Positions 31,843 to 48,724 of a DNA stretch of 64,000 bases are shown here, in pieces. A model generated the notes under the pieces. That model had not been told where the DNA came from. It made no database searches and saw nothing but the letters and a program-made list of their open reading frames with translations. Source of the stretch: Burkholderiaceae bacterium (lineage in GTDB: Bacteria > Pseudomonadota > Gammaproteobacteria > Burkholderiales > Burkholderiaceae_C); contig JAHCKM010000002.1 of NCBI GenBank assembly GCA_026125795.1, positions 1,054,001 to 1,118,000 on the forward strand, given 5' to 3'. Each line of letters begins with the position of its first letter. Position 1 is the stretch's first letter. The position numbers and the translations under genes are program-made.

Positions 31843-32547
31843 TCAGGGGTCGGTGCGCGTCAGCGCCTGCGGCCACAGCGCGGCCGCCGCGCCGAAGATG
31901 GAGCCGCCGGCCAGCGCCTGGCCGTCGTGCACGAGCTCGATCCACGCCAGCGTGTCGTGGTGCGCGCCCGGAATGCGGTCCTTCGAACGCTCGGCCGCCA
32001 GCCAGCGGTGCAGCCGTGGGTACAGCGCCGCGTGGCGCCGCTGCACCCAGGCCAGGCCGACGAGATCGGCATAACCTTCCTCGCGCCGTGTCGAGCGCAT
32101 CTGCACATAGGCCTGGCGGTCTTCGGCGTTCAACGATGCCGGTTCGCGCGCGACAAAGCCGGCCGGCAGGCCGTGCCAGGTGCCATCGAGGTAGCGTCTG
32201 CAGTGGCCCAGCTCGTGCGCGGCCATCAGCTCGAGCGCGGCGTCGAGCAGCCCGGCATCGATGCGTGCCAGCGTGGCCTCGGCCTCGGCGTTGCCGCGCA
32301 TCGACAACACCAGCTTGCAGCGCCCGTCGACAAAGCCCAATGCGAGCGGGGCGGCGCCGGGCGCGTCCTGCGGCTGCACGACGATGTCGAGCGGCATGTC
32401 CTGCGCCTTGGCGAAGGCCACGACCGGTGCGGCGCCGGTCAGCCAACGCACCTCGGTGACGGTGAGATCGGCTGCCGCAACCATCGACGACGCCAGCCAG
32501 CACAAGCCTGCGAACCACCCGCTGCGCACTGCGCACTCCTCCTGCAC
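31843..32547 (-). CDS. exported protein with HExxH zinc-protease motif
   Basis: 234 residues. The N-terminus (VRSGWFAGLCWLASSMVAAA) looks like a signal peptide, so the protein likely acts in the periplasm. LMAAHELGHCRRYLD at about 108-122 contains HExxH (His111, Glu112, His115), the zincin motif, and a downstream REEGYADLVG supplies a plausible third ligand, as in gluzincins. No known family is clear. The start is less certain because a Met (MVAAADL) follows within the hydrophobic segment. Confidence 0.72.
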   Translation of the reverse strand: MQEECAVRSGWFAGLCWLASSMVAAADLTVTEVRWLTGAAPVVAFAKAQDMPLDIVVQPQDAPGAAPLALGFVDGRCKLVLSMRGNAEAEATLARIDAGLLDAALELMAAHELGHCRRYLDGTWHGLPAGFVAREPASLNAEDRQAYVQMRSTRREEGYADLVGLAWVQRRHAALYPRLHRWLAAERSKDRIPGAHHDTLAWIELVHDGQALAGGSIFGAAAALWPQALTRTDP

Positions 32548-32751
32548 GACCTTCGTGCGACAAGGCGCACATGGTCGGGGCAGACGTGGCCGTGGCGCAT
32601 GGGAGGCGGCGTCGCACGCGCGATCTGCGTGCGCTGCGCACGATTCGAGCCGCCGGCCACGGATGCTGGCACGCGCGTTGCCGGCGGATGCGTGCGGCGC
32701 GCCGCTTTCAGCCTATGCTCGCCGTACCGCTGTCTTGAAGGAGCATCTGCC

Positions 32752-33372
32752 ATGGCCGTGAACCGCAAACTCCATGCGCTGCTGTGCGCCACGCTGGGCG
32801 CCGGCGTGGTGGGCTGTGCGTCCACGCAACTCGATGCGCAGTGGTCCGACCCGCAGCTCGCGCCCAACCCGCTGCGCGGCGCGCGCGTGATGGTGGTGTG
32901 CGAGGCCTATGACCTCGCCGTCAAGCGCATCTGCCAGGATCAGATGGCCGCCGAGGTGGTGGCGCGCGGCGGCACCGCGGTGCCGGGGCCCGAGGCGAGC
33001 GAGGGCGCGCCGGTGCGCCCGCTCAACAACGACCAGTACCTTGGCGCCGCGCGCACTGCCGGCGCCAAGGCGGTGCTGACGCATTCGATCACCACCGCCG
33101 ACGTCAGCACCGGATCAGGCGTGTCGATCGGCATCGGTGCGTTCGGCATCGGCGGCGGCAGCGTGCGCGGCGGCGCCGGCGTGTCGGTGCCGGTGGGCGG
33201 CCAGCGCACGAACACCGGCTATGCGATCAACAGCCGCGTCACCGAAGTGGCCAGCGGCAAGCTGCTGTGGACCGCCAAGGCGAGCGCCGCGCCGTCGTCG
33301 GACGTGAGCGCTCAGCTGTCGGAGCTGCACAAGGTGGTGTTCGGCGCGGCCGACAAGGCGAACTTGTTCTAG
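32752..33372 (+). CDS. putative lipoprotein
   Basis: 206 residues. Signal peptide KLHALLCATLGAGVVGC with lipobox VVGC and the next residues ASTQ. ATG at 32752 follows GAAGGAGCATCTGCC, a good ribosome site. The mature domain has a GARVMVVCEAYDLAVKRICQD block, a Gly-rich stretch (GVSIGIGAFGIGGGSVRGG), and AINSRVTEVASGKLLWTAKAS, which resembles periplasmic lipoproteins related to outer-membrane or curli-type factors. No function can be assigned. It ends 10 bp from the convergent lyase gene. Confidence 0.7.
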   Translation: MAVNRKLHALLCATLGAGVVGCASTQLDAQWSDPQLAPNPLRGARVMVVCEAYDLAVKRICQDQMAAEVVARGGTAVPGPEASEGAPVRPLNNDQYLGAARTAGAKAVLTHSITTADVSTGSGVSIGIGAFGIGGGSVRGGAGVSVPVGGQRTNTGYAINSRVTEVASGKLLWTAKASAAPSSDVSAQLSELHKVVFGAADKANLF

Positions 33373-33382
33373 GGCGGCCGGT

Positions 33383-34240
33383 TCACTCGTAGCGCTTGCC
33401 GAGCGCCAGCAGCTCCGGCGTGCCGATCAGCGCATTGAGGCCGTCGAAGTCGAGCATGCGTTCGCGCATCGCTGCGCTGCTGCCGTGTGCGTGCAGGCTG
33501 GCGTAGTAGACCTGCAGCGTGTGTGCCACCGCACGCGCCGTGCCGCCCGGAAAGATCACCATGCGAAAGCCGCGTGCGCCGAGCTCGGCGGCGCTTTGCA
33601 TCGGCGTCTGTCCACCCTCGACCATGTTGGCCAGCAGCGGCACGCGCGACGCAAAGCGCCGGCACGCCGCGTCCATCTGCTGCGGCGAGCGCAGCGCCTC
33701 GACGAACAGCGCGTCGACACCGCATTGCAGATAGGCCTCGGCGCGGTCGAGGGCGGATTCGAGCCCCTCGACCGCGACCGCATCGGTGCGCGCCAGGATC
33801 AGCGTGCCAGCGTGGCGCCGCGCATCGAGGGCCGCCCGCAGCTTGCCGCGCATCTCGTCGATCGGCACGACGCTCTTGCCATCGAGGTGTCCGCAGCGCT
33901 TGGGGAAGGTCTGGTCCTCGAGCTGGATCATCGCGGCGCCGGCGCGCTCGAGCCCTTGCACCGTGCGCCGCACGTTGAGCGCGTTGCCGAAGCCGGTGTC
34001 GGCGTCGACGATCACCGGCGTGGTCACGCGCTCGGTGATGCGCGCCAGCGTCTCCTCGACCTCGCTGTAGGTGGTGAGTCCGACGTCGGAGCGGCCGAGC
34101 CGCGTGTAGGCGATCGAGGCGCCCGACAGGTACAACGCTTCGAATCCGGCGCGTTCGGCGATCAGCGCCGACAGCGCGTCGTAGACGCCGGGTGCGAGCA
34201 GCACGCGCGGTTGCGCCAGGCGTTGTTGCAGCGAGCTCAT
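33383..34240 (-). CDS. PEP mutase/isocitrate lyase-family lyase
   Basis: 285 residues of the PEPM/ICL superfamily, which cleaves C-C bonds next to carboxylates. Motifs are APGVYDALSALIAERAGFEALYLSGASIA (first strand and substrate Ser), VDADTGFGN (Mg2+ Asp near residue 80), QLEDQTFPKRCGHLDGK with the lyase Cys at about 116, and ILARTDAVAV. The KRCGH signature belongs to lyases (methylisocitrate, dimethylmalate) rather than to mutases. It is the last gene of the big operon and overlaps the flavoprotein by ATGA. Likely role: split a hydroxylated dicarboxylate or tricarboxylate into pyruvate or a similar keto acid and a smaller acid. Confidence 0.88.
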   Translation of the reverse strand: MSSLQQRLAQPRVLLAPGVYDALSALIAERAGFEALYLSGASIAYTRLGRSDVGLTTYSEVEETLARITERVTTPVIVDADTGFGNALNVRRTVQGLERAGAAMIQLEDQTFPKRCGHLDGKSVVPIDEMRGKLRAALDARRHAGTLILARTDAVAVEGLESALDRAEAYLQCGVDALFVEALRSPQQMDAACRRFASRVPLLANMVEGGQTPMQSAAELGARGFRMVIFPGGTARAVAHTLQVYYASLHAHGSSAAMRERMLDFDGLNALIGTPELLALGKRYE

Positions 34241-35607
34241 CCACCGCTCTCCAGTTGTCGTGCGGCGCTGTGCGCCGCGATGAAGCCGCCTGCCACGGCG
34301 CTCAACAGGCCGTTGCCCGACAGATAGCCCTGTATCGCAGGGCCTGACACGCCGCGCGCGGCGCCGCCGGCGGCGAGCAGGTTGGGCAGTGGCGTGCCCG
34401 AGCCGCGCAGCACACGCGCCTGGGCGTCGATGTCGAGTCCGCCTTGCGTGTGGAACAGCGCTCCGGTGACCTTGATCGCGAAATAGGGCGGCCTGAGCTG
34501 TGTGCCGGCGAGCGTGTCGCCGAGCGCCGATGCATCGCAGCCGATGTGCGCCGCGAGCCGTGCCGTGTCGCCGGCCGTGCGCACCGCGCCGGCGCTCTCG
34601 GCGGCCACGAAGTCGGGAAAGTCGCGGGCCAGCGCGAGCAGCCGCTGGTTGAACACGTCCCATGCCACGCCGCCCGGTTGCGCCAGCACCTGCACCGCGG
34701 CCTCGGAGTAGCCCTGCGTCTCGTCGTGGAAGCGCTGGCCCCGTGCGTTGACCTGGATTCCGCCTTCGGTCATCAACGCCCAGGTGATCAACGCGCCCTG
34801 GGGCACCGCCCACGAGCCGTGGCCCTGGCACGCCGCCATGTCGGCCAGCCGCGCGCCGAGCGCGCGCCCCCACGCGACGGCGCTGCCGTCGTTGCCGGCG
34901 TGGCCGGCGAACACCGCGTCGCGCATCTCGGGCAGCCACTCGCGCACCATGGCCGCGTTGCCGCCGAAGCCATTGCATGCCAGCAGCAGCACACGGCAGG
35001 CGAGGTGGTCGATGCGCCCATCGGGCCGTTCGTAGCCGATGCCCACCACGCGGTCCTCACCATCGCACCACAGCTGGCGCACCAGTGCGCGTGTCAGCAC
35101 CATGGCGCCGGCGCGCGTGGCGGCGGCCTCCAGCGCATCGAGCAATGCCGCGCCGGTGCGCGCCGGCAGCGTATGCATGCGCCGGCACGTGTGGCCAGGG
35201 TAGAGAAAGCCGTCGAGCAGCTCGAATTGCAATCCATGACGCTGTTGCAGCGTGTCAATCGCCGCCGTGATCGCGTGGGTGTACGCGCTGACCAGGTGCG
35301 GCGCCGCCATGCCCTGGGCCTTGGCCTGGATGTCGGCGGCGAACCGTGCCGCGCTGTCATCGTGCACCCCGGCCGCGCGCTGCACCGCGGTACCGGCGGC
35401 CGGGATGAAACCCGACGACAACGCGGTCGAGCCGCGCGGGATCGGGTCGCGCTCCAGCAGCACGCAGTCGATGCCCGCGTCGCGCAGCAACAGCGCGGCG
35501 GTGAGGCCGCAGGCGCCAGCACCGACGATGGCCACCGGCACGTCGGGCGTGCCTGCCGGCATGGCCTGCGCACGGCACACGCTGGGTTCGCTCAACGCGC
35601 GGTCCAC
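34237..35607 (-). CDS. FAD-dependent oxidoreductase, fumarate reductase/KstD type
   Basis: 456 residues. The N-terminal dinucleotide fold (VPVAIVGAGACGLTAALLLRDAGIDCVLLERD) and the C-terminal FAD loop (LLAAGGAARGVSGPAIQGYLSGNGLLSAVAGGFIA) frame a FAD-binding_2 family enzyme. The class interconverts C-C single and double bonds next to carbonyl or carboxyl groups (fumarate reductase, tricarballylate dehydrogenase, ketosteroid dehydrogenase). The upstream stop is one base from the GTG start; an ATG 15 codons in is an alternative. In the operon order it would dehydrogenate the ring-opened acid to an unsaturated acid for the LeuCD-like hydratase. Confidence 0.85.
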   Translation of the reverse strand: MDRALSEPSVCRAQAMPAGTPDVPVAIVGAGACGLTAALLLRDAGIDCVLLERDPIPRGSTALSSGFIPAAGTAVQRAAGVHDDSAARFAADIQAKAQGMAAPHLVSAYTHAITAAIDTLQQRHGLQFELLDGFLYPGHTCRRMHTLPARTGAALLDALEAAATRAGAMVLTRALVRQLWCDGEDRVVGIGYERPDGRIDHLACRVLLLACNGFGGNAAMVREWLPEMRDAVFAGHAGNDGSAVAWGRALGARLADMAACQGHGSWAVPQGALITWALMTEGGIQVNARGQRFHDETQGYSEAAVQVLAQPGGVAWDVFNQRLLALARDFPDFVAAESAGAVRTAGDTARLAAHIGCDASALGDTLAGTQLRPPYFAIKVTGALFHTQGGLDIDAQARVLRGSGTPLPNLLAAGGAARGVSGPAIQGYLSGNGLLSAVAGGFIAAHSAARQLESGG

Positions 35608-35608
35608 G

Positions 35609-37078
35609 TCAGGTGGGGCGGTGCAGGTATTGTCCGCGCGGCTTGCCGAGCACCTGCCCGTTCTCGAAGATCTTGTGGCCGCGCAGGAACGTGGCGTCGA
35701 CGCGCGCCGACAGCTCGATGCCTTCGAACGGCGTGTAGCCCTGCGTCGACGGCGAGTCCTCGGCTCGGATGGTCCAGGTGTGCGACGGGTCGACGATCGC
35801 GATGTCGGCGTCGAAACCCTCGGCGATGTCGCCCTTGCGGTTCAAGCCGTAGCGCTGCGCGGGATTCCAGCTCGTCACGCGCGCCATGTGGTTGTAGCCC
35901 ATGCCGCGCCGGGAGCCTTCAGTCACCAGCGCGGGCAGCAGGTACTCGGTGCCGCCGAAGCCCGACTTGGCCATCCAGATGTTGCCGAAGTAGCGCTTGG
36001 GGATCTTGGTCTCGTGCCGGCAGCAGGCATGGTCGGAGCACACCCAGTCGAGCTCGCCGGCGAGCAGCGCGTCCCACAGGAACTCCACGTCCTCGCGCGG
36101 CCGGATCGGCGGGTTGACCTTGGCAAGCTCGGCCGCCTTTGACGTGATGTCGAGCACCAGGTGGCCGATCGTCACCTCGCGCCGGAAATCGATGTGCGGG
36201 AACACCTCGGCCATCGTCATCGCCGCCTGCACCGCCTTGCGCGAGCTCAGGTGCAGCAGGTTGATGTTGGGCAGCGCCGCCTCGTTGGCCAGGTAGGCCG
36301 CCGTGAACACCGCCAGCCCTTCGCTGTGCGGGGGGCGCGACGCGCTGTAGGCGGCCAGCCCCTTCATCGACTTGTCCTTCTCGACGATCTTGGTGTACGC
36401 CGTCATGATCTCGGCCGTTTCGCAGTGCAGCGACAGCGAGATCTGCCGCGCGCGGTCGGCGAACCGCTCGCGCGCCGCCTGCAGCCCGCGCATGATGAAC
36501 TCGAAGTGCGCCACGTCGTAGCGCTCGTCGTCGCCGATCATCAGGAACTGGCGCTGCGAGTCGCTGGCGCCGTGCAGGCCGTGCGAACCGTAGAACATGA
36601 AGATCTTGAAGCTCGCGACGCCGTGCTTGTCGATCAGCATCGGCAGCTCGTCGATGTGCTTGCGCTCCATCGGCGCCAGATGAAAGCCGTAGTCGACGTG
36701 GAAGCGGTCCTTGGCGAGCTTGAGCACCTCGGGAAAGAACTTGGCGTACGGCCCGCCCTTGTTGAGGTAGTACTGCCCGGTGCGAAAGTAGTTGAGGCTC
36801 GACGTCGCGCCACCCATCGCGGCGGCCTTGCTCTCGCTGACGGCGTCTTCGTCCAATGGCGAGTAGATGCCGCAATGCATGTGCGCGTCGACCACGCCGG
36901 GAAAGGCGAGCCGACCATTGCCTTCGTAGACGCTCTTCGCTCGCGTCGGCTCGATCGCCGGCGCCACCTTGGCCACGCAACCATCCCGGATCGCGATGTC
37001 GGCCTCGTGCACCACGTTGCCGTGCGGCCGCACGACGCGCACGTTGCGGATCAACAGGTCGAACTTCGGAGCGCTCAT
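35609..37078 (-). CDS. cyclic amidohydrolase (dihydroorotase/hydantoinase family)
   Basis: 489 residues of a TIM-barrel metal amidohydrolase. VVDAHMHCG supplies the HxH pair (His66, His68); the Lys in ASFKIFMFYG near 158 is the likely carboxylated bridge. SLSLHCET near 225 and INLLHLSS near 280 give the other His ligands, and WVCSDHAC near 365 the catalytic Asp. Nearest known relatives are hydantoinases/dihydropyrimidinases and imidases, which open cyclic amides and imides. ATG at 37078 overlaps the stop of the LeuD-like gene (ATGA). Substrate unresolved. Confidence 0.88.
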   Translation of the reverse strand: MSAPKFDLLIRNVRVVRPHGNVVHEADIAIRDGCVAKVAPAIEPTRAKSVYEGNGRLAFPGVVDAHMHCGIYSPLDEDAVSESKAAAMGGATSSLNYFRTGQYYLNKGGPYAKFFPEVLKLAKDRFHVDYGFHLAPMERKHIDELPMLIDKHGVASFKIFMFYGSHGLHGASDSQRQFLMIGDDERYDVAHFEFIMRGLQAARERFADRARQISLSLHCETAEIMTAYTKIVEKDKSMKGLAAYSASRPPHSEGLAVFTAAYLANEAALPNINLLHLSSRKAVQAAMTMAEVFPHIDFRREVTIGHLVLDITSKAAELAKVNPPIRPREDVEFLWDALLAGELDWVCSDHACCRHETKIPKRYFGNIWMAKSGFGGTEYLLPALVTEGSRRGMGYNHMARVTSWNPAQRYGLNRKGDIAEGFDADIAIVDPSHTWTIRAEDSPSTQGYTPFEGIELSARVDATFLRGHKIFENGQVLGKPRGQYLHRPT

Positions 37079-37554
37079 GCCTTGGTTTCCATCCGTCGTT
37101 TGAGTTGATTCATCAGGCCGCCGTCCTCGACGAGGTCGAGCAGCAGCTTCGAGATCGGCTTGCACGCGAGCACCTCGCCACCAGCCCGGCGCACGTGGCC
37201 GCTGTGCGCATCGAAAGTGATCGATTCACCGTCTTCAATGCGTGCGGCATCGGGGCAGGTGAGCAGCAGCAGGCCCACGTTGAATGCGTTGCGGTGGAAC
37301 AGCCCCGCATAGTTCGGCGCGATCACCGCCGCAATGCCCAGGTGCACCAGCACGCTGGCAGCCTGCTCGCGCGACGAGCCGATGCCGAAGTTGGGACCGG
37401 CCACGATCACGTCGCCAGGCTTCACTTGTTGTGCGAACTCGGGGCGGATCCCTTCGAGGCAATGGCGCGCGATGGTGTCGAGGCCGTGCTTCATCGCATG
37501 ACCGGGCGCCAGTTGGTCGGTGTCGACGTCGGCTGGTAGGCGCCACGTTCTCAC
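37075..37554 (-). CDS. LeuD-like small subunit of an aconitase-family hydratase
   Basis: 159 residues with the swivelling-domain motifs: DVDTDQLAPGHAM at the N-terminus, GPNFGIGSSREQA (substrate-binding Arg/Ser loop near residue 57), and NYAGLFHRNAFNVGL. It pairs with the LeuC-like large subunit 550 bp away on the same strand; together they form a [4Fe-4S] hydro-lyase. Because a lyase and a flavoprotein are in the same operon, dimethylmaleate/mesaconate-type hydration fits better than leucine synthesis. The long gap to its partner is filled by the first large repeat. Confidence 0.88.
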   Translation of the reverse strand: MRTWRLPADVDTDQLAPGHAMKHGLDTIARHCLEGIRPEFAQQVKPGDVIVAGPNFGIGSSREQAASVLVHLGIAAVIAPNYAGLFHRNAFNVGLLLLTCPDAARIEDGESITFDAHSGHVRRAGGEVLACKPISKLLLDLVEDGGLMNQLKRRMETKA

Positions 37555-37564
37555 TTGCCAGCCT

Positions 37565-38100
37565 CCGAGCGCGCAAAGCCGCGGCCGGGTATGCGCCGGC
37601 GCTCGTGTACGGCGGTCGGCCCTGCGGGCCGACTCCCCTGCGCTCCTCGATCACATGGCCCGCGTCGAAACTTGCTCCGCTCGCTGCGTTCGCTATGCTC
37701 GAACAGTCGACGCGAGTCAGAGGTTGAAGCGCGCGCTGCGCGCGCGCGGCCATGCGCTCTGCGGTGCTCGGCGCCGCACAATGTCGCTGCCGGCGCATAC
37801 CCGACCGCGGCTTTGCCACCACCGCCGAGGTATTTGTCGACAAGCACCTCGGTCGTACTGCGCGGTGGGCGGTACCCGGGGTGGGCGACTTGTGGGGCGG
37901 CGAGGAGCGGAGCGGCGCGAGGGGAAGTCCGGCGCCTACGGCGCCGGACCGGCGAGAAGCCATGAAGCGGCGGCCCGTTCAGGGCCGCTGCGAGCGGCAT
38001 CACAGCCGCCCTCGTGACGGGAGCACCGCAGCGCAGTCGGCGCGCAGCGCCGACCGACCCAGCAGGAGCCCACCCCGGGTACCGCCCGCCGCGCCGCGCC
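37565..38100. repeat. large intergenic repeat, copy 1 (536 bp, contains a 27-bp inverted repeat)
   Basis: Diverged direct repeat of 42694-43314, lying between the LeuD-like and LeuC-like genes. A 27-base arm at 37860-37886 and its complement at 38068-38094 (26 of 27 match) enclose a 181-bp inner region. Inside are smaller hairpins such as GTCCGGCGC-CTAC-GGCGCCGGAC. Long parts are almost identical to copy 2. No protein homology; open frames through it are not kept between copies. Confidence 0.85.
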
Positions 38101-38104
38101 ACAC

Positions 38105-39373
38105 TCACGCCAGCACCTCACGTGCATCAGAGACGCGACCCATCAGCGCCGACGCGGCAACGGTATAGGGTGAGCCCAGGTAAACGCGAGCATCGGCCGC
38201 ACCCATGCGCCCCTTGAAGTTCCGCGCAGTCGACGAGATCACCGTGCTGCCCTCGGGAATCGCGTGCCCGTAGCCGGCGCAAGCGCCGCAGGCGCTGGGC
38301 AACAGCGTCGCACCAGCCTCGACCAGAATGGACATCGTCCCGTCTCCTTCAGCGACGCCGCGTTCCTGCATGCTGGCGGGTGCCACCAGCAGTTGCACAC
38401 CCGCTGCGACCTTGCGGCCCTTCAGCACGCTCGCCGCCGCGCGCAGGTCGTCGAGCTTGGCGCCGGTGCAGGCGCCGATGTAGGCCACGTCGATCGGGGT
38501 GGCGTCAAGCGATGACACCGGCTGCACGTTGGCCGGGCTGTGCGGCAGCGCCACTTGCGGCGCCAACGCTGATGCGTCGAAGTCGTGCCGCTCGTCGGCG
38601 CTGCCGTCGTCGCTGCGCCAATGGTCGAAGTCAATGCCCGACACGTCGACGTCGTGGTCGACGAGCCAGTGGCGCGTGGTCGAGTCCGGCGCGATCAGGC
38701 CCACCTGCGCCCCGAGCTCGGCGCTCATGTTGGCCAGTGTCATGCGCTCGGCCATCGACAGTGCGGCCACCGCATCGCCGGCGTACTCCACCGCCTGGTA
38801 GCGGCCGCCGTTCATGCCGAAACGGCCGAGCATCGCGAGCATCATGTCCTTGGCGCTCACGCCGCGTGCCAGGCGGCCGCGCCAGTGCATCAGGATCGTC
38901 TGCGGCACCTCGAGCCAGATCTGGCCGGTGACCACCACGCCGAGCATTTCGGTGGCGCCGATGCCGAACATGTAGGCGCCGAACGCGCCGCCGGTGGGCG
39001 AGTGCGAATCGCCGCCGACGCAGAACATGCCCGGGTGGATGTGGCCGCGCTCGGGCACGACGATGTGGCAGATGCCCTGGCTGTCGTAGACGTGCGGCAA
39101 TGCCTGCTCGGCGGCCCAGTCGCGCGCGATGCGCACGATGCGGCGCGACTCGTCGTCGCGCTCGGGCACGTAGTGATCGAGCACCAGCACCACCTTGCGC
39201 TTGTCCCAGATCTGCGCCTCGAGCTCCGCCAGCATTGGCTGCAGGCGCCGCGGTCCGCTGGAGTCGTGGAACATCGCGAGGTCGACCGAGCACGTCACCG
39301 TTTCGCCGGGCAACACGCTGGCACGGCCTGCCGCGCGGGCGATCAGTTTTTGCGCCAGGGTCGTTGCGGTCAT
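38105..39373 (-). CDS. LeuC-like large subunit of an aconitase-family hydratase
   Basis: 422 residues, the length of the homoaconitase/dimethylmaleate hydratase large subunits. Motifs are VDLAMFHDSSGPRR, VLVLDHYVPE, GMFCVGGDSHSPTGGAFGAYMFGIGATEM, and the iron-sulfur cysteines in YIGACTGAK near residue 300 and SACGACAGYG near 363. Acts with the LeuD-like subunit as a [4Fe-4S] hydro-lyase. It follows the ABC ATPase gene by 15 bp on the same strand. Confidence 0.9.
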   Translation of the reverse strand: MTATTLAQKLIARAAGRASVLPGETVTCSVDLAMFHDSSGPRRLQPMLAELEAQIWDKRKVVLVLDHYVPERDDESRRIVRIARDWAAEQALPHVYDSQGICHIVVPERGHIHPGMFCVGGDSHSPTGGAFGAYMFGIGATEMLGVVVTGQIWLEVPQTILMHWRGRLARGVSAKDMMLAMLGRFGMNGGRYQAVEYAGDAVAALSMAERMTLANMSAELGAQVGLIAPDSTTRHWLVDHDVDVSGIDFDHWRSDDGSADERHDFDASALAPQVALPHSPANVQPVSSLDATPIDVAYIGACTGAKLDDLRAAASVLKGRKVAAGVQLLVAPASMQERGVAEGDGTMSILVEAGATLLPSACGACAGYGHAIPEGSTVISSTARNFKGRMGAADARVYLGSPYTVAASALMGRVSDAREVLA

Positions 39374-39388
39374 GTCGAGAACCCCAGG

Positions 39389-40104
39389 CTACAGACCCAG
39401 GTAGGCCCGCTTCAGTTCGCTCGACGCCAGCAGCTCCTGCGGCGTGCCGGCAAAACGCTGCAGGCCGTTTTCGAGCACGACGGCGCGTTGCGCGATCGCC
39501 AGCGACTGGGCCACGTTCTGTTCCACCAGCAGCACCGAAAGCCCATCGGCATGCAGGCGCTGGATCAGCGCGAACAGCTCCTCGACCAGCAGCGGCGACA
39601 GTCCGAGCGACGGCTCGTCGAGGATCAGCAACCGCGGCTCGGCCATCAGGCCGCGGCCGATCGCCAGCATCTGCTGCTCGCCGCCGCTCATCGTGCCGGC
39701 CTTCTGCCCCACGCGTTCGGCCAGGCGCGGAAACGTGGCGAACACGCGTTCCAGGTTGGCCGCGCGCCGCTCGCGAGCTCGCGCGAACGCGCCGAGCTCG
39801 AGGTTCTCGCGCACGCTCAGGTTCGGAAAGATGCGCCGGCCCTCGGGCACCTGGATCAGCCCGGCCTTCACCACGTCTCGGTAGTGGCGGTTGGTGAGAT
39901 CGGTGCCGTCGAAGCGCACTTGGCCGCCGCTGGCCGGCACGAGGCCGCAGACGATGCTGTTCAGCGTGGTCTTGCCGGCACCGTTGCTGCCCAGCAGCGC
40001 CACGATCTCGCCGCGCTTGACCTGCAGGTCGACGCCGCGCAGCACGTCGGCGCGGCCATAGCCGCCGCGCAGGCCTTGCACGTCCAACAGCGCCGGGCCT
40101 GAGT

Positions 40105-40108
<4 letters not shown>
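39389..40108 (-). CDS. livF: branched-chain-type ABC transporter ATP-binding protein
   Basis: 239 residues. Walker A GSNGAGKTT near residue 38, signature SGGEQQ near 139, Walker B LLILDEPSLGLSP near 156, and the H-loop-like LLVEQN. Smaller and with the LivF VPEGRRIF element, so the LivF partner. ATG overlaps the LivG stop (ATGA). It energises uptake with LivG at the inner membrane. Confidence 0.95.
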
Positions 40109-40846
<738 letters not shown>

Positions 40847-40854
<8 letters not shown>

Positions 40855-41812
40855 GCAGCCTCCTCTGCCACCATGCGCGCAATGAATCACCGGCACCGGC
40901 CAGCCCGCGCGGCATGAACATCACGATCACCACCAGCACCGAGCCGTAGATCACCAGGTTGAGCCCGGGCAGGTTGCCGAACAGGTTGCGCGTGCCTTCG
41001 GCGAGCGCGTGGAGCACCGCGGCGCCGAGCACCGGACCCCACAGCGTGCCCATCCCGCCGACGATGGCCCCGACCAGCGCCTCGACGCTGACGTGGGGCC
41101 CGAACGCGATGGCCGGATCGATGTACTGGAACACCTGCAGATAGAACGCTCCGGCCGCGCCCATGAAGACGGCCGACAGCACGGTGGCGGCGAGCTTGGT
41201 GCGCCGCGGGTCGACGCCCACCGCGCGCGCCGCATCCTCGTTGTCGCGCACCGCCTGCAGCCGCGCGCCGAAGCGCGAGTGTCGCAGCCACGCGCTGACG
41301 AGCAGGGCAGCGACCACGCAGCCGAGCACGAGGCCGACGAAGCCCTTGCGCGAGGCGAACTGCAGGTTGGCCGCCGATTCCTTCAGCGGCAGCATCATTC
41401 CGACGCCACCACCGGTGAAGCCGGCCGACACCGCGAGGATGCGAAACACCTCGGCAAACGCCAGCGTCACGAGCGCGAAGTACGAGCCCTTGAGGCCGTA
41501 GCGAAACACCAGCGCGCCGACACCGGCGCCGACCAGCGCCGCCGCCGCGATTGCGAGCGCAAAAGCCGCCCACGCGTTGAAGCCGTGCGTCACCTGTGCG
41601 ATCACGCTGGCGTACGCGCCGACGCCGAAGAACAGCGCATGGCCGAACGAGAACTGCCCGCCAAAGCCGCCGAGCAGGTTCCACGCCAGCGCGAGCAGCG
41701 CCGCGTACAGCGTCATCATCAGGGCGTTGAGCCACACGCCCGACTGCAGCCACAGCGTCAGCGCGATCACGGCGAGCGCGAAGATCGCGATGCCGGTGAG
41801 ATCACGGCTCAT
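40847..41812 (-). CDS. livM: branched-chain-type ABC transporter permease
   Basis: 321 residues with about nine to ten hydrophobic segments and LivM motifs: LALAWNLLGGFGGQFSFGHALFFGVGAYAS and SRFGARLQAVRDNEDAARAVGVDPRRTKLAA, the cytoplasmic coupling loop that docks on the ATPase. ATG overlaps the LivH stop (ATGA). Transport path for the substrate together with LivH. Confidence 0.95.
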
Positions 41813-42678
41813 GCGCGGGCCCCGAACAAGCCGGTGGGCCGGAACAGCAGCACCGCGATGAAGATCGCGAAGATGCCGATCTGGCCCAGCGATTCGCCGA
41901 GGAACAGCCCGCCCAGCGACTCCACCACGCCGATCAACAGTCCTCCGATCAAGGCACCGGCAAAGCTGCCCATGCCACCGAGCACGACGATCGTGAAGGC
42001 CACCAGCACGAAGCCGGCGCCGACCTGGGGGTTCACGTAGTAGGCGGGCAGCAAAAAGCACGCCGCCGCGCCGAGGCAGGCCAGCCCGATGCCGAAGCTC
42101 ATCGCATAAACGTGGTCGACGTCGATGCCCATCAGCTTGGCGCCGGTCTTCTCCTTGGCCACCGCGCGGATCGCGCGGCCGAGGTCCGTGCGCGTGACGA
42201 TAACGAGCATCAGCGCCGACGTGACGAGCGCGCCGACAAACGCCACGATCTTCGGCAGCGCGATGAACGCCGGGCCGATTTGCAGCGTGCTGAGCGTGTA
42301 GGCCGTGTCGATCGTGCGCGTGTCGCTCTTGAACGCCATCAGCGCGAGGTTCTCCAGCACGATCGCCAGGCCGAGCGTCACCAGCAGGATGTTCTCGTCC
42401 TTACCGTGGCTGGCGCGGTTGATCACGCCGCGCTGAAGGGCGTAGCCGAGCACGAACATCGCCGGCACCATGATCGGCAGCGCCAGGTAGGGATCGATGC
42501 CCCACGCGGTCTTCAGCCCGTATACGCCGTACAGCGCCACCATCAGCGCCGCCCCGTGCGCGAAGTTGATGATGTGCAGCACGCCGTAGATCAGCGTGAG
42601 GCCGAGCGCGACGAGCGCATACACGGCGCCGGTGGTCAGGCCGTTGAGTATCGACGCGAAGAGGATGTCGATGCTCAT
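41809..42678 (-). CDS. livH: branched-chain-type ABC transporter permease
   Basis: 289 residues, eight or so hydrophobic segments, LivH motifs NGLTTGAVYALVALGLTLIYGVLHIINFAHGA, and the coupling loop DLGRAIRAVAKEKTGAKLMGIDVDHVYAMSFGIG. It is first of the contiguous transporter block; a 654-bp gap with the second large repeat separates it from the binding protein gene. Confidence 0.95.
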   Translation of the reverse strand: MSIDILFASILNGLTTGAVYALVALGLTLIYGVLHIINFAHGAALMVALYGVYGLKTAWGIDPYLALPIMVPAMFVLGYALQRGVINRASHGKDENILLVTLGLAIVLENLALMAFKSDTRTIDTAYTLSTLQIGPAFIALPKIVAFVGALVTSALMLVIVTRTDLGRAIRAVAKEKTGAKLMGIDVDHVYAMSFGIGLACLGAAACFLLPAYYVNPQVGAGFVLVAFTIVVLGGMGSFAGALIGGLLIGVVESLGGLFLGESLGQIGIFAIFIAVLLFRPTGLFGARA

Positions 42679-42693
42679 GGCTGCTTGCTGCGA

Positions 42694-43314
42694 CCGAGCG
42701 AGGCAAAGCCGCGGCCGGGTGTGCGCCGGCGCTCGGCTGCGGCAGCCCCTCGCTGCGCGAGGGGTACCCTGCGGTACTCAGTCTCACGGCCCGGGTCGAT
42801 ACTCCCGCCGCTCACTGCGTTCGCTGTGGTCGAACAGTCGACGCGAGTCAGATGTTGAAGCGCGCGCTTCGCGCGCGCGGCCGCGAGCCTTGCGTTCCTC
42901 GGCGCCGCAGATGTCGCTGCCAGCACACACCCGACCACGGCTTCGCCGGCACATCGGTGGCATGCATCGACAAAGACCGCGAGCGTCTCTGCGCGGTGGG
43001 CGGTACCCGGGGTGGGCGACTTGTGGGGCGGTGAGAAGCGCAGCAGCGCAATGGGAAGTCCGGCGCGCTTTGGGCGCCGGACCGGCGAGAAGCCATGAAG
43101 CCGAGCTCGGACACGAACAGTCCAGTGGACTGTTCGTGCCTGGCGAGGGGCCGGGCCCCCTGGCCCGGCGCGGCCTGCAAGGCGTGGCCCGTTCAGGGCC
43201 GCTGCGAGCGGCATCGCAGCCGCCCTTGTGATGCGAGCATCGCAACGAAGTCGGCGCGCAGCGCCGACCGACCCAGTAGGAGCCCACCCCGGGTACCGCC
43301 CGCCGCGCCGCGCC
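42694..43314. repeat. large intergenic repeat, copy 2 (621 bp, contains a 27-bp inverted repeat)
   Basis: Direct repeat of 37565-38100. Inverted arms at 42991-43017 and 43282-43308 match the arms of copy 1. The hairpin GTCCGGCGC-GCTTTG-GGCGCCGGAC keeps the stem of copy 1 with another loop. Compared with copy 1 it has about 85 extra bases around 43100-43185 that contain the palindrome at 43112-43138. It lies between the binding protein and permease genes of one operon. Confidence 0.85.
43112..43138. repeat. 27-bp perfect palindrome, TCCAGTGGA core
   Basis: Two 13-base arms around a central G at 43125, core ACAGTCCAGTGGACTGT. It shares TCCAGTGGA with the palindrome at 7186-7214, while the outer arms differ and stay complementary. 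It sits in the extra 85 bases of large repeat copy 2, so it may have arrived by insertion. Confidence 0.85.
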
Positions 43315-43332
43315 GACACCACAACCAAGATC

Positions 43333-44532
43333 TCAACTGCGCATCGGAAACACCGGCTCCGCCTCCCGGTACTCGCGCGGCACGATCACCCGGATATCGC
43401 CCTTGATCACCTGCGTCATCAGCGGTTGCGCCCCGGTGTTCTGCCCATTCTCGAACCGGGTCGGCCCGTAGGGCATGAAGTGGTCGCTGAACGTGCTCTT
43501 GCCCAATGCATCGACGATCGCCGCGCGATCAGCGCTCTTGGCACGCTCGATCGCATCGGCCAGCAGGCGCACCGCGGTGTAGGTGTTGAACACCTCGTAG
43601 CTGTAGAACAGATTCTTCGCCTCGGTGCGCTTCTTCAGCTCCAGCGCGCGCTTGTCCCTGGGGTTGAACCAGTGGTTGCAGTCGATGATGCCGTTGGCGG
43701 CGTCGGGGAACTCCTTCAGGAACTTGTAGCTCGACGCGGCGCCGCCGAGCACCGAGTAGATCGCCTTGGGCGCCACCTTCTGCTGCTGCATCGTGCGCAC
43801 CAGCAGCGCGTACTCGTTGTAGTAGTTGGCCGGGATCACGATGTCGGGATTGACCGACTTCATGCGCAGCACGATGTTGTTGAAGTCGCGCGTCGGGTTG
43901 GCGTGCTTGATCACCTCCTTGACCTCGTAGCCGAAGCCGGGCAGCTCCTTGGCCAGCAGGTTGGCGGTGCCGGTGCCGAACAGGCTCTCCTCGTGGATGA
44001 TCATCACGGTCTTCGCCGGCTTGCCGGCCGCGGTGTTGAGCACGTGCAGGTTCGACATCGCGATCTGCGCGCAGGTGCGGTAGCCGGGGCCGAAGCGGAA
44101 CGTGTTCTTCAGCCCGCGCTCGACGATCTGGTCGGCCACGCCCACGTCCACCACGTGCGGCAGGTTGTACTTGGCGGCGGCCTGCGTGGTGGCCAGGCAG
44201 ATCGCGCTGGCGTAGGCGCCCACCACCGCGGCGCAGCCGGCCTCGTTCATCTTCTCGATCTCGGCCGCGCCGGCCTGCGGCGTGCTCTGCGCGTCGCCCA
44301 GCATCACCTCGAGCTTGGCGCCGCCGAGCGCCTTGATGCCGGTCTTGTTGATGTCGTCCACCGCCATCAACGCGCCCTCGCGGCACTGCTGGCCGGAGTA
44401 GGCGAGGGCGCCGGTCACCGGGTGCAGGATGCCGACCTTCACGGCCCTGGGCTGCGCGCCGCCCACCAGCGGAAAGGCCAGCGCCGATGCCGCGGCGGCC
44501 GATTGGCGGATGAAGGTGCGACGGTTGCTCAT
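43333..44532 (-). CDS. branched-chain-type ABC transporter substrate-binding protein
   Basis: 399 residues. Signal peptide MSNRRTFIRQSAAAASALAFPLVGGA with a twin-arginine-like RRTF. Type I periplasmic-binding fold: VKVGILHPVTGALAYSGQQCREGALMAVDDIN, then VVGAYASAICLATTQAAAKYNLPHVVDVGVAD and the HEESLFGTGTANLLAK block. The family binds branched-chain amino acids but also many aromatic and dicarboxylic acids or amides; this member travels with a degradative operon. Names the uptake step of the pathway. Confidence 0.93.
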   Translation of the reverse strand: MSNRRTFIRQSAAAASALAFPLVGGAQPRAVKVGILHPVTGALAYSGQQCREGALMAVDDINKTGIKALGGAKLEVMLGDAQSTPQAGAAEIEKMNEAGCAAVVGAYASAICLATTQAAAKYNLPHVVDVGVADQIVERGLKNTFRFGPGYRTCAQIAMSNLHVLNTAAGKPAKTVMIIHEESLFGTGTANLLAKELPGFGYEVKEVIKHANPTRDFNNIVLRMKSVNPDIVIPANYYNEYALLVRTMQQQKVAPKAIYSVLGGAASSYKFLKEFPDAANGIIDCNHWFNPRDKRALELKKRTEAKNLFYSYEVFNTYTAVRLLADAIERAKSADRAAIVDALGKSTFSDHFMPYGPTRFENGQNTGAQPLMTQVIKGDIRVIVPREYREAEPVFPMRS

Positions 44533-44563
44533 GGCGAAGGCTCCTGTTGTTGAGAGAGGTCCA

Positions 44564-45349
44564 TCAGTGGAACTGCGCCGACAGCTCGGTGCTGACCCAC
44601 ACCTTGGCGGCGACGCCGCCCACGCGAGACAACTGCATCTGGTACTGGTAGCGGTCAGGCCGATACAGGCCCTGCAGCCATTGCACCGGCCGCTCGTCGG
44701 TGTCGTAGACCAGGCGGTCCACCGCGAGCAGTGCGGTGCCCGGGGCCACGTCGAGGCGGGCTGCCACGGCGTCGTCGGCAGGGCAGGCCGAGATGCTTTG
44801 CGTGGCGCGGCCGATGTGCACGCCGGCGCGCTCCAGCAGCAGCAGGATCGGCTCGCGCGCCAGCTCGCGCCGGCCGAAGCCTTGCGCCAACTCCTGCGGC
44901 ACCCACGTGGTGATGTGCGACAGCGGGCCTTCGTGCGTGGCGCGCACGCGTGCCGCTCGCTGCACCCTCGCACGGACCGGCAGACCGAGCCGCTGCGCCA
45001 CGGCGGCCGGCGCAACGACCACGTCGCACGACAGCACCTTCACCTGCGTCTGCAGGCCCATGTGCACGATGTTTCCCAGCAGGCCGGGCAGGCGGCCGGC
45101 CGCAACGGCGGCCGGCGCGCCATGACCATCGTGGCGGCGCGGCCGGGTGCCCCGTCCGGGGCGGCGGTCGATCAGGCCCTCCGACGCGAGGCGCTCGAGG
45201 GCCTTGCGCACGGTGGCGCGTGCCACGCCGAACTGCTGCACCAGACTCAGCTCGGGCGGCAGTCCGTCGCTGAAGCGGCCCTCGGCCAGCTGCTCGCGCA
45301 ACACCAGGTAGACCTGGTGGTACTTGGGCAGCGGCACGGCGGGCGCCAT
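44564..45349 (-). CDS. GntR-family regulator with UTRA domain (HutC subfamily)
   Basis: 261 residues. Winged helix PLPKYHQVYLVLREQLAEGRFSDGLPPELSLVQQFGVARATVRKALERLASEGLIDRRPGRGT, followed by a UTRA effector domain (RRELAREPILLLLERAGVHIGRATQSISACPADD, PGTALLAVDRLVYDTDERPVQWLQGLYRPDRYQYQM). Proposed repressor of the operon that follows on the same strand, sensing a substrate or intermediate. An inverted repeat lies 25 bp upstream of its start. Confidence 0.92.
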   Translation of the reverse strand: MAPAVPLPKYHQVYLVLREQLAEGRFSDGLPPELSLVQQFGVARATVRKALERLASEGLIDRRPGRGTRPRRHDGHGAPAAVAAGRLPGLLGNIVHMGLQTQVKVLSCDVVVAPAAVAQRLGLPVRARVQRAARVRATHEGPLSHITTWVPQELAQGFGRRELAREPILLLLERAGVHIGRATQSISACPADDAVAARLDVAPGTALLAVDRLVYDTDERPVQWLQGLYRPDRYQYQMQLSRVGGVAAKVWVSTELSAQFH

Positions 45350-45440: not shown

Positions 45441-46355
45441 TCAGGCCATCGCCGGCCGGCCGCTCGGCCCCCAGATGGACTCCGGACGCGTGCGCGGATC
45501 GCGCGCCGGCCATCGCCCGGACGCGACCTGCAGCACGAACCCCTCGAGCAGCTGGTTGAAGCGCAGCGGCTCCTCCAGGTTCACCGCATGGCCGGTGCAC
45601 GGCATGATCGCGAGGCCGGCGGTCGGTATCGTGCGCTTGAGCAGCAGCGAAGGCTCCAGGCACGGCTCGTCCTCGTCGCCGCACACCACCAACACCGGCA
45701 CGTCGATCAGAGCCAGCGCATCGGTGAGGTCATACAGACACGGCCGTCGCGCCTGATAACCCTCCATCGTGCAGGCCGAGCCGGCGGCCGAGTGCGATGC
45801 AAACTGCCGCTCGAAGTCGGCGAATCCGCGCGGATCCTTGCGCAGGTATTGCAGGCGTGACGGTCCATGGCCATAGGTGGCCGCCACGTGCGGCATGCCC
45901 TCGCGCCGCATCTGCTGCGCCAGCGCCGTGCAATCGTGCTGGAAACGCCGGTACAGCGCCGGGTGCGCGCCGGAACCGACGCCCACCAGCGTCAGCGACA
46001 GCGCGCGCGACGCGGCCCCTTGCGTGCCGTGCTGCAGGCCGAAGTGCAGCGCCGCAAACGCGCCCATCGAGCAGCCCACAACGTGCGCGTGGCGGATGTC
46101 GAGCGCATGGAGCACCGCGGTGATGTCGTCGCGCTGCCGCTGCTGCACGTAGCGCTCGGCGCTTTCCGGCACGTCGCTCGGTGGGTAGCCCCGCGCGTTG
46201 TACGCGATGCAGCGGTGGGTGCGCGCAAAGTGGCGCAGCTGCGGCTCCCAGCTGCGGTGGTCGCCGGCGAACTCGTGCACGAACACGATCGGCGTGCCGC
46301 TGCCAACCTCCTCGTAGTGCAGGCTGACGCCGTCGTCGGTGCGCAGGAAGGGCAT
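45441..46355 (-). CDS. alpha/beta hydrolase
   Basis: 304 residues. The nucleophile elbow GCSMGA near 98, the acid in VLVVCGDEDEPC near 231, and the His in MPCTGHAVNLEE near 260 form a triad. The oxyanion loop reads VHEFAGDHRSW where HG is the norm (VHEF). Resembles 3-oxoadipate enol-lactonase-type hydrolases. It is upstream of the GntR gene on the same strand, with a possible operator between them, so it may be transcribed separately. ATG at 46355 is preferred to a longer frame. Confidence 0.87.
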   Translation of the reverse strand: MPFLRTDDGVSLHYEEVGSGTPIVFVHEFAGDHRSWEPQLRHFARTHRCIAYNARGYPPSDVPESAERYVQQRQRDDITAVLHALDIRHAHVVGCSMGAFAALHFGLQHGTQGAASRALSLTLVGVGSGAHPALYRRFQHDCTALAQQMRREGMPHVAATYGHGPSRLQYLRKDPRGFADFERQFASHSAAGSACTMEGYQARRPCLYDLTDALALIDVPVLVVCGDEDEPCLEPSLLLKRTIPTAGLAIMPCTGHAVNLEEPLRFNQLLEGFVLQVASGRWPARDPRTRPESIWGPSGRPAMA

Positions 46356-46465
46356 GGTCGCTGCTCCGCCTTGTAGAGGGTTGCTCGCGACATTAGATTG
46401 AGCATCGCGAACCCGACCACCCGGGTCTGCCCGATGTGCAAGTGCGCCGCGGCTGATCACACTGC

Positions 46466-46738: not shown

Positions 46739-46854
46739 GGCGCCGCCTGCGGCGCCCGGACTCCCCTAAGGCGCCGCCTGCGGCGCCCGAACTCCCCCAG
46801 GGCGCCGCTTGTGGCGCCGAGTTCCCTGGGCCCCGCTTGCGGCGCCCGGTTCAG
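46738..46854. repeat. tandem GC hairpin array between convergent genes
   Basis: Three units of 30-32 bp plus a partial fourth: GGCGCCGC-CTG-CGGCGCC stems, each followed by a short CGGACTCCCC-like link. The array fills the space between the small membrane gene and the convergent amidohydrolase and covers the stop codon of the latter. It may end transcription from both sides. Confidence 0.85.
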
Positions 46855-48452: not shown

Positions 48453-48724
48453 GGGTTGTCTCCTGGTTGTGCGGCGCACCCGGGTGCGCCGGTGTTCGTG
48501 TGCGAGCGATTCTGCGCCCGGCATTTCGGCCCGCGACACAAAATCGACACCCCATCGATCGGGTCGATCTGGGCCGGTGACCGCGTCGATGGGCCCGACT
48601 TGGCGACCGGGGGTGGTAGAAGCGGCCTGTGCAAAAACTGCAAGCGCCACCGGATCCCACGCCGCGACACCGATGGTCACACGGGTATCGGGAGGGGGAC
48701 GGCGCTGTTGGCACAATGGCGTCC

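What the first reader, a model, noticed from the sequence alone, without database searches (positions are those of the whole stretch)
33383..45349. Long operon whose gene order spells out a new-looking catabolic route
Seen: ten co-directional genes (the last six of eight junctions overlap or nearly touch) encode a GntR/UTRA regulator, a Liv-type ABC transporter, LeuC-like and LeuD-like hydratase subunits, a cyclic amidohydrolase, a fumarate-reductase-type flavoprotein and a PEPM/ICL-family lyase with KRCGH. Known: the hydratase and lyase families together occur in nicotinate fermentation (dimethylmaleate hydratase, dimethylmalate lyase), where an amidohydrolase (enamidase) also takes part. Inferred: a cyclic amide or imide is imported, opened, dehydrogenated, hydrated and cleaved in order. 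The other nicotinate enzymes are missing, so the substrate is probably different.
Basis: partly seen in the sequence, partly recalled or inferred. Interest (0 to 1): 0.8.

Follow-up and report, generated by a model that had tools for sequence, protein, structure and literature searches.

The report
Modular operon for degrading cyclic amides
This operon looks like a bacterial pathway that opens a ring-shaped nitrogen compound and cuts the product into ordinary metabolites; the same pathway recurs in distant microbes with its individual enzymes swapped for unrelated ones, which points to a real nutrient route whose starting compound is still unknown.

Summary
The gene set is real: eleven (not ten) co-directional genes; eight junctions are close and two contain a dispersed 550-650 bp repeat, one of them between leuC and leuD. 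Curated cut-offs for leucine-synthesis LeuC, PrpB, hydantoinase and allantoinase are all missed, and a canonical LeuC lies elsewhere in the genome. The strongest evidence is comparative. Among 63 loci around related LeuC genes, the zinc cyclic amidohydrolase (22) and a HyuA/HyuB pair (15, each with an isochorismatase-type amidase) never occur together; 26 have neither. The flavoprotein and LivK track the ring opener (29/37 each, against 1/26 and 0/26). Among 25 other genomes anchored on the flavoprotein, 18 carry one of three unrelated ring openers (amidohydrolase 3, HyuAB 10, PuuE-type 5), none two, and 13 have opener, hydratase and PEPM-type lyase. Rhodococcus and Haloferax plasmids carry versions with further substitutions. 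The substrate is unknown. Methyl-substituted cyclic imides are my preferred guess; tetrapyrrole-derived imides are the boldest version.

The parts
44564..45349 (-). GntR/UTRA transcriptional regulator
   Evidence: Pfam UTRA 114.9 bits and GntR 61.3 bits; a relative in 52 of 63 related loci
43333..44532 (-). LivK-type periplasmic substrate-binding protein
   Evidence: Peripla_BP_6 E 2.7e-42; in 29 of 37 loci with a ring opener and 0 of 26 without
42690..43320 (.). copy of a dispersed repeat lying between livK and livH
   Evidence: DNA search of the own genome: many copies, best other copy 89% over query 7-628
41809..42678 (-). LivH-type permease
   Evidence: BPD_transp_2 E 2.7e-37; up to 90% identity at the same place in related loci
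40847..41812 (-). LivM-type permease
   Evidence: BPD_transp_2 E 2.9e-38; overlaps livH by 4 bp
40105..40854 (-). LivG-type ATPase
   Evidence: ABC_tran 98.4 bits and BCA_ABC_TP_C 43.9 bits
39389..40108 (-). LivF-type ATPase
   Evidence: ABC_tran 109.1 bits; best NCBIfam match LivF, 241 bits, below its cut-off of 441
38105..39373 (-). LeuC-like hydratase large subunit (archaeal IPMI/homoaconitase type, not LeuC of leucine synthesis)
   Evidence: NF001614 506.1 (cut-off 385) and hacA_fam 402.4 (385.7) met; leuC TIGR00170 238.3 (560.25) not met; three Cys in the usual cluster motifs invariant in 80 sequences
37555..38104 (.). second copy of the dispersed repeat, between leuC and leuD
   Evidence: matches at G000:C2:1091565-1091968 and 1091972-1092104
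37075..37554 (-). LeuD/DmdB-family hydratase small subunit
   Evidence: TIGR02087 'LeuD/DmdB family' 157.2 bits, cut-off 108.95; Met21-Lys22 in the loop that reads YLRT in homoaconitase 2pkp
35609..37078 (-). cyclic amidohydrolase (ring opener) with a complete set of binuclear-site residues
   Evidence: H66, H68, K158, H218, H276 and D349 invariant in 27 sequences and aligned with allantoinase 3hm7; below allantoinase and hydantoinase cut-offs
34237..35607 (-). FAD flavoprotein of the flavocytochrome c / ketosteroid dehydrogenase fold
   Evidence: model pLDDT 90.1; fold matches tied between KstD, fumarate reductase, urocanate reductase and cyclohexanone dehydrogenase; H263, W276, Y300, H386, Y428 invariant in 34 close relatives
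33383..34240 (-). PEP-mutase/isocitrate-lyase-family C-C lyase (KRCGH)
   Evidence: prpB model 285.7 against cut-off 354.4; PEP_mutase Pfam 150.8; found in 57 of 63 related loci

Best explanation
The operon encodes uptake and breakdown of a small cyclic amide, most likely a five-membered cyclic imide carrying a methyl group next to a carbonyl. Inferred steps: (1) the Liv-type transporter imports the ring compound and GntR/UTRA senses it or a product. (2) The flavoprotein dehydrogenates the C-C bond next to a carbonyl (succinimide-like to maleimide-like), probably on the ring or the half-amide, not on the free diacid. (3) The zinc amidohydrolase opens the ring to a half-amide. (4) A second amide hydrolysis, assigned to an isochorismatase-type amidase in the HyuAB and PuuE versions and unassigned in this genome, gives a substituted maleate. 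(5) The LeuCD-like hydratase adds water, giving a substituted malate. (6) The PEPM-type lyase cleaves this to an oxo acid (pyruvate, if a methyl group sits on the hydroxyl carbon) and a carboxylic acid. Shown here: gene content, active-site residues, mutual exclusion and co-occurrence of modules. Inferred: all reactions, their order and the substrate.
For: Mutual exclusion: amidohydrolase in 22 and HyuAB in 15 of 63 LeuC loci, both in 0; isochorismatase in 15/15 HyuAB loci, 0/22 amidohydrolase loci and 0/26 others; PuuE-type in 0 of 63. Flavoprotein-anchored sample of 25 other genomes: amidohydrolase 3, HyuAB 10, PuuE-type 5, two or more 0; opener + hydratase + PEPM lyase in 13; controls clean. 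PuuE-type openers rest on PDB and NCBIfam matches; that fold group is reported to contain cyclic imide hydrolases (PMC9304392, passages). MmgE/PrpD in the place of LeuCD in Roseomonas. Rhodococcus version with CoA transferase, RipC-like CoA-ester lyase and MmgE/PrpD beside the same amidohydrolase at 61%. Haloferax version with flavoprotein, isochorismatase, amidohydrolase, CoA transferase, HMG-CoA-lyase family and LeuCD.
Against: No second amidase lies in the operon, and the genome's best relative of the isochorismatase is 30% identical, so step 4 is a gap here. The flavoprotein is missing in 8 of 37 opener loci, so it may be optional. Seven of 25 flavoprotein genomes show no opener at the thresholds used; L180 and L179 are short contigs and L185 lacks the residue signature, but L159 and L160, counted as opener-positive, lack it too, and L159 counts as HyuAB only through a distant (37% identical) HyuA query. 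Of 7 genomes with the amidohydrolase among 399, three besides the four with flavoprotein and LeuC differ: in G059 it stands apart from its flavoprotein and LeuCD, in G280 no flavoprotein was found nearby, and G305 is a 3.6 kb contig with a CoA transferase. Two plasmid records outside the samples hold two opener kinds within 10 kb of the flavoprotein (Acidiphilium: PuuE-type and HyuAB; Rhodococcus: amidohydrolase and HyuAB), though these HyuA are only 37-39% identical to the pathway type. The isochorismatase is nearest to RutB, biuret hydrolase and other amidases, which would also fit a ureide ring. Nothing here identifies the substrate.
Confidence: 0.6

Rival explanations
1. The ring is a ureide (hydantoin or dihydropyrimidine type), not an imide: the amidohydrolase or HyuAB opens it to an N-carbamoyl acid, the isochorismatase-type enzyme removes the carbamoyl group, and the hydratase and lyase process the carbon skeleton.
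For: Nearest models of the amidohydrolase are allantoinase, hydantoinase and ErtD hydantoin-5-propionate amidohydrolase; solved relatives of the isochorismatase include RutB, biuret hydrolase and an N-carbamoylsarcosine-amidase-related protein; the Haloferax cluster lies 2.75 kb from a hut operon with a histidine ammonia-lyase.
Against: A ureide would leave an amino acid, and no ammonia-lyase or transaminase was in the operon or recurred next to the flavoprotein in the annotated records seen; single cases exist (hutH in Haloferax, gabT about 24 kb from the Rhodococcus flavoprotein). An MFS transporter, a VOC protein and a regulator separate the Haloferax cluster from hut, so that closeness may be chance.
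Confidence: 0.2
2. The hydratase-lyase core is a general pathway for alkylmaleates/alkylmalates (citraconate-like or dimethylmaleate-like acids), and the ring openers are attached in different lineages for different, unrelated amides. (This overlaps with the best explanation; the odds are not exclusive.)
For: 26 of 63 loci have the core without any of the three openers, 22 of these 26 with a Bug/TctC binding protein and 0 with LivK.
Against: The flavoprotein keeps Y300, Y428, H263 and H386 with all three openers and in the Rhodococcus and Haloferax copies, and shares regulator and transporter types, which suggests one substrate class.
Confidence: 0.3
3. Variant of the nicotinate fermentation pathway (dimethylmaleate hydratase and dimethylmalate lyase).
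For: LeuD matches the LeuD/DmdB family model; 2,3-dimethylmalate lyase 3fa3 is among the lyase's solved relatives, below PrpB.
Against: None of the eleven operon genes matched a mutase, isomerase or hydroxynicotinate reductase model; the amidohydrolase matches allantoinases and hydantoinases best.
Confidence: 0.05
4. Leucine, 2-methylcitrate or pyrimidine genes that are adjacent by accident.
For: Each gene belongs to a large family with such members.
Against: The pathway-specific cut-offs are missed, a canonical LeuC is elsewhere, and order and module exclusion recur across many genera.
Confidence: 0.03

Closest known systems
Nicotinate fermentation, lower half (Eubacterium barkeri DmdAB hydratase and Dml lyase)
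   Same: A LeuCD/DmdB-family hydratase followed by a PEPM/ICL-family lyase; an amidohydrolase opens a ring earlier in the route (pathway details recalled).
   Different: No B12 mutase, isomerase or hydroxynicotinate reductase in the operon; uses a flavoprotein and Liv-type import; the opener is allantoinase/hydantoinase-like.
Aspergillus nidulans hxn nicotinate pathway (HxnM cyclic imidase, HxnN amidase)
   Same: A cyclic imide is opened to a half-amide, then an amidase gives the diacid (PMC9304392, passages read); HxnM is reported there as related to HpPgdA and PuuE, the fold of the PuuE-type opener here.
   Different: Ends at 2-hydroxyglutarate; no hydratase or lyase of these families mentioned in the passages; the window's opener is of another fold.
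2-methylcitrate cycle (PrpB) and tricarballylate use (TcuA)
   Same: Flavin dehydrogenation, aconitase-family hydration and PEPM-type cleavage are the same kinds of step.
   Different: Cut-offs of PrpB and TcuA are missed; a ring opener is added.
Itaconate degradation (RipABC) and caprolactamase CapAB
   Same: The Rhodococcus version uses a RipC-like lyase (154.6 bits) and a CoA transferase; HyuA/HyuB are nearest to CapA/CapB (524.1 and 290.5 bits).
   Different: All are below the curated cut-offs (375 and 1000).

Membership tests
Leucine biosynthesis LeuCD | Large subunit passes TIGR00170 leuC (560.25) | tested here: not met
   238.3 bits; the genome's other LeuC scores 765.3
Archaeal IPMI/homoaconitase/DmdAB-type hydratases | Passes subfamily models of large and small subunit | tested here: met
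   NF001614 506.1 of 385, hacA_fam 402.4 of 385.7, TIGR02087 157.2 of 108.95; IPMI_arch TIGR02086 397.2 is just below its 410.15
Archaeal IPMI/homoaconitase/DmdAB-type hydratases | Activity on a given maleate/malate pair | not testable with these tools
   the loop differs from IPMI/citramalate isomerase 3vba and homoaconitase 2pkp
Methylisocitrate lyase PrpB | Passes TIGR02317 (354.4) | tested here: not met
   285.7 bits
Dihydropyrimidinase/D-hydantoinase and allantoinase | Passes TIGR02033 (393.25) or TIGR03178 (357.85) | tested here: not met
   195.3 and 221.1 bits
Cyclic amidohydrolases with carboxylated lysine | HxH, Lys, two His and Asp metal ligands present | tested here: met
   H66, H68, K158, H218, H276, D349 invariant in 27 sequences, aligned with 3hm7; that they are the metal ligands is recalled
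Fumarate reductase (flavocytochrome c) | Catalytic Arg402 and substrate Arg544 | tested here: not met
   Tyr300 at Arg402 (the 1jrz Arg402Tyr mutant aligns Tyr on Tyr); no Arg in the aligned segment of Arg544; roles of these Arg recalled
Fumarate reductase / KstD fold | Fold | tested here: met
Nicotinate fermentation cluster | Methyleneglutarate mutase, methylitaconate isomerase and hydroxynicotinate reductase encoded with the hydratase and lyase | tested here: not met
   none among the operon genes; rest of the genome not searched

The most novel reading that the evidence does not exclude
The pathway mineralises methyl-substituted cyclic imides released when chlorophyll, haem or bilins are broken down (hematinic acid, methylethylmaleimide and their dihydro forms). 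Each pyrrole of these pigments bears one methyl group (recalled), so hydration and cleavage would give pyruvate plus glutarate or butyrate; hematinic acid is chemically the imide of a methyl-homoaconitate, which matches the homoaconitase-type hydratase with a Lys where homoaconitase has Arg; the flavoprotein would handle the dihydro forms from the reduced ring D. Hematinic acid was found in leaves and, by the literature cited there, maleimides too in senescent leaves and lake sediments, although that study itself could not detect maleimides (PMC7318184, passages). It would be a missing last stage of tetrapyrrole turnover.
Probability: 0.12. Interest if true: 0.92.

Novelty: new variant of a known kind. 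Interest (0 to 1): 0.62.

Why it matters
A pathway found in alpha- and betaproteobacteria, with an actinobacterial and a haloarchaeal version, whose enzymes are replaced by unrelated ones, is good evidence for a nutrient that many microbes meet; I found no description of it in the searches listed. The module pattern turns a list of generically annotated genes ('3-isopropylmalate dehydratase', 'dihydroorotase family', 'PEP mutase family', 'hydantoinase') into one testable pathway with a small set of candidate substrates. If the substrate is a tetrapyrrole imide it would close a gap in how pigments made and degraded on a 10^12 kg per year scale (PMC7318184, passage) return to central metabolism.

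Tried and rejected
Tetrapyrrole link through CpeT: the amidohydrolase of G280 lies beside LeuCD and a secreted-looking CpeT/CpcT-family (bilin lyase family) protein, and a weak DUF3598_N match lies upstream (22.7 bits, cut-off 22). CpeT occurs in 5 of 399 Burkholderiales genomes. Around the copies of G250 and G152 and the second G280 copy the panel found no pathway gene beyond one 25% amidase match (L125, L126, L128); the 3.7 kb contig of G126 had no panel match (L127); the marginal match in G327 was not followed. I treat CpeT as a hint only.

Amidohydrolase structure: the model was poor (pLDDT 57.3) and was not used for a fold search.

Upstream genes 45441-46358 (alpha/beta hydrolase) and 46851-48716 (ATZ-like amidohydrolase): no match in the related loci, so left out. 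Downstream 31927-33372 (+): no Pfam match at E<=0.001.

HyuB of the own genome (C3, 679 bits): its HyuA/HyuB are only 33/31% identical to the pathway pair, so not counted as the pathway type.

Literature: ten searches. By titles and abstract openings, no listed paper described this gene set; (five family names, three required) returned 0 papers. Lists were cut (30 of 44; 15 of 73; 12 of 36; 10 of 11). The library holds open-licence PMC papers only, so older and subscription work on imide metabolism is not covered. PMC7318184 and PMC9304392 were seen as passages only; all others as search listings.

A phylum-wide search for the amidohydrolase (E<=1e-90) found it only in the own genome and G323 among 398 genomes; it gave no new context.

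Weak points of the counts: the 80 LeuC loci were the best 80 of 321, so close relatives are over-represented; 17 of the 80 were left out of the tally because less than 7 kb lay downstream. G241 had two flavoprotein matches and only one was examined. In one search two flavoproteins (L110, L181) were dropped because the matched stretch contained a stop. Thresholds (45% identity for openers and lyase, 42% for PuuE-type, 10 kb) were set by me after seeing the listings.
Full report
OBSERVATION. The window lies in a 6.57 Mb genome (G000:C2) of about 70% GC. The minus-strand run 45349-33383 holds eleven genes: GntR/UTRA, LivK-, LivH-, LivM-, LivG- and LivF-type genes, LeuC-like, LeuD-like, cyclic amidohydrolase, flavoprotein, lyase (reading frames and starts checked). 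Eight junctions are tight; two contain a 550-650 bp repeat (37555-38104 and 42690-43320) that has many copies elsewhere in the genome. No Rfam family at gathering score and no tRNA lies in the window.

WHAT IT IS NOT. The LeuC-like protein passes broad subfamily models (NF001614 506.1 bits, hacA_fam 402.4) but not leucine-synthesis LeuC (238.3 of 560.25). LeuD passes the LeuD/DmdB family model. The lyase misses PrpB (285.7 of 354.4), and the amidohydrolase misses allantoinase (221.1 of 357.85) and hydantoinase (195.3 of 393.25). A separate canonical LeuC (765.3 bits) is encoded on contig 1. A second pair like this LeuCD (69 and 62% identity) sits with a GntR gene on contig 4 without a lyase, flavoprotein or opener; the neighbour beyond its LeuD matches pyrE.

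MODULES, FIRST SAMPLE. The nearest LeuC genes in GTDB genomes gave 80 loci (best 80 of 321). In the 63 loci with at least 7 kb downstream, leuD is present in 63, the lyase in 57, the amidohydrolase in 22, and HyuA/HyuB in 15, always with an isochorismatase-type gene (15/15; 0/22 in amidohydrolase loci; 0/26 in the rest). No locus has both openers; 26 have neither, and the PuuE-type opener described below is in 0 of 63. The flavoprotein is present in 18/22 amidohydrolase and 11/15 HyuAB loci but 1/26 of the rest, LivK in 16/22, 13/15 and 0/26; a Bug/TctC binding protein is present in 22/26 of the loci with neither opener, 11/22 and 4/15 of the others. So a hydratase-lyase core that can stand alone is joined, in some lineages, by a ring opener, usually a flavoprotein, and a different importer.

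MODULES, SECOND SAMPLE. The flavoprotein profile (34 sequences) was searched in even samples of the phylum (13 of 398 genomes) and the order (16 of 399) at E<=1e-120; 26 genomes in all, 25 without the window's own, at least two of them also in the first sample. Within 10 kb of the flavoprotein, 3 have the amidohydrolase, 10 HyuAB (one, L159, only through a distant HyuA query) and 5 a pair of PuuE-type deacetylase-fold proteins; 18 have one and none has two. An isochorismatase-type gene accompanies 13 of the 15 HyuAB or PuuE loci and 0 of 3 amidohydrolase loci. A hydratase (archaeal-type LeuC, bacterial-type LeuC or MmgE/PrpD) is present in 15, the PEPM lyase in 15, and opener plus hydratase plus lyase in 13. 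The seven without an opener are L178, L179, L180, L182, L183, L184 and L185; L179 and L180 are short contigs and L185 lacks the residue signature, while L159 and L160, counted as opener-positive, lack it too. Eleven control regions, two of which hold LeuCD, show no opener at 45% identity or more, no flavoprotein and no PEPM lyase.

AMIDOHYDROLASE ALONE. At E<=1e-100 the amidohydrolase is in 7 of 399 genomes of the order. Four (own, G323, G356, G396) have it with flavoprotein and LeuC. In G059 it is not near LeuCD or the flavoprotein, which is on another contig; in G280 it is near a bacterial-type LeuCD, MmgE/PrpD and an amidase, with no flavoprotein in the fetched stretch; in G305 the contig is 3.6 kb and holds a CoA-transferase gene next to it.

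OTHER VERSIONS. Plasmid records show further versions: Burkholderia plantarii (PuuE-type pair, isochorismatase, LeuCD, flavoprotein, lyase), Azospirillum oryzae, Sulfitobacter pontiacus (HyuAB plus a tautomerase), Tistrella, Roseomonas (MmgE/PrpD where LeuCD would be), Acidiphilium (PuuE-type pair, LeuCD, HMG-CoA-lyase family and CoA transferase, with a second, distant HyuAB 7 kb away), Neorhizobium (no opener in the fetched stretch). In Rhodococcus gordoniae pDND3A the same amidohydrolase (61%) and a 39% flavoprotein lie with distant HyuAB (39/29%), an amidase, MmgE/PrpD, a CoA transferase and a RipC-like CoA-ester lyase. In Haloferax gibbonsii pHG2 a 44% flavoprotein lies with an isochorismatase, a cyclic amidohydrolase, a CoA transferase, an HMG-CoA-lyase-family enzyme and LeuCD. 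So exclusion of openers held in both samples, while two records outside them carry a second, distant HyuAB. The PuuE assignment rests on PDB and NCBIfam matches, below the PuuE cut-off.

SUBSTRATE. Unknown. In the small hydratase subunit the loop that reads YLRT in homoaconitase 2pkp reads AMKH here and most often YMKF in relatives, with Lys in 64, Gln in 13 and Arg in 1 of 78 at the Arg position. That this Arg binds the extra carboxylate of homoaconitate is recalled; if so, a third carboxylate is possible. Together with the homoaconitase-type models and a lyase that would release pyruvate from a methyl-bearing carbon, this suggests hematinic-acid-like imides. Hematinic acid was found in leaves, and maleimides are cited for senescent leaves and sediments, though that study could not detect maleimides itself (PMC7318184, passages). 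A CpeT-family gene beside the amidohydrolase in one genome is a single, unreplicated hint. I give this reading 0.12.

GAPS. No second amidase is in the operon, and the nearest isochorismatase-type gene in the genome is 30% identical. The flavoprotein is absent from 8 of 37 opener loci. Reaction order, substrate and transcription are untested.

VERDICT. A real and widespread operon; the chemistry class is well supported, the substrate open. New variant of a known kind, interest 0.62.

Noticed in passing
window 42690-43320 and 37555-38104: A 550-650 bp repeat occurs in many dispersed copies in this genome (near-full-length copies 78-89% identical, many partial ones, some pieces also matching inverted) and has landed twice inside this operon; no Rfam match at gathering score in the window.
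   Followed up: partly
L009 8.9-11.9 kb (G000:C4): Second LeuCD-like pair (69/62% identity to the window's) with its own GntR gene and no lyase, flavoprotein or opener; the gene beyond LeuD matches pyrE.
   Followed up: partly
L112 7861-9105: Secreted-looking CpeT/CpcT-family (bilin lyase family) protein between LeuD and a relative of the window's amidohydrolase, on a contig that also holds MmgE/PrpD, a CoA ligase, an amidase, an RPE65-type oxygenase and a weak DUF3598_N match (L115).
   Followed up: partly
L189 0.5-17.2 kb: The haloarchaeal version of the pathway lies close to a histidine-utilisation (hut) operon and carries an F420-type LLM oxidoreductase.
   Followed up: no
L131 4124-4690, L132 223-714, L153, L158: A tautomerase-family gene recurs in some versions of the cluster; it might move a double bond between alkylidene and ring positions.
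   Followed up: no
L020 7636-8733 and L027 13311-14399: A beta-lactamase-family (PF00144) hydrolase gene on the opposite strand sits between amidohydrolase and flavoprotein in two Rubrivivax loci; possible second amidase.
   Followed up: no
L090 6.9-11.5 kb: Streptomyces plasmid with the amidohydrolase (62%) next to an NMT1/THI5-type ABC transporter; the panel found no other pathway enzyme in the fetched 21 kb.
   Followed up: partly
window 46851-48716 and 45441-46358: An ATZ/TRZ-type amidohydrolase and an alpha/beta hydrolase lie upstream on the same strand but had no match in the related loci.
   Followed up: partly
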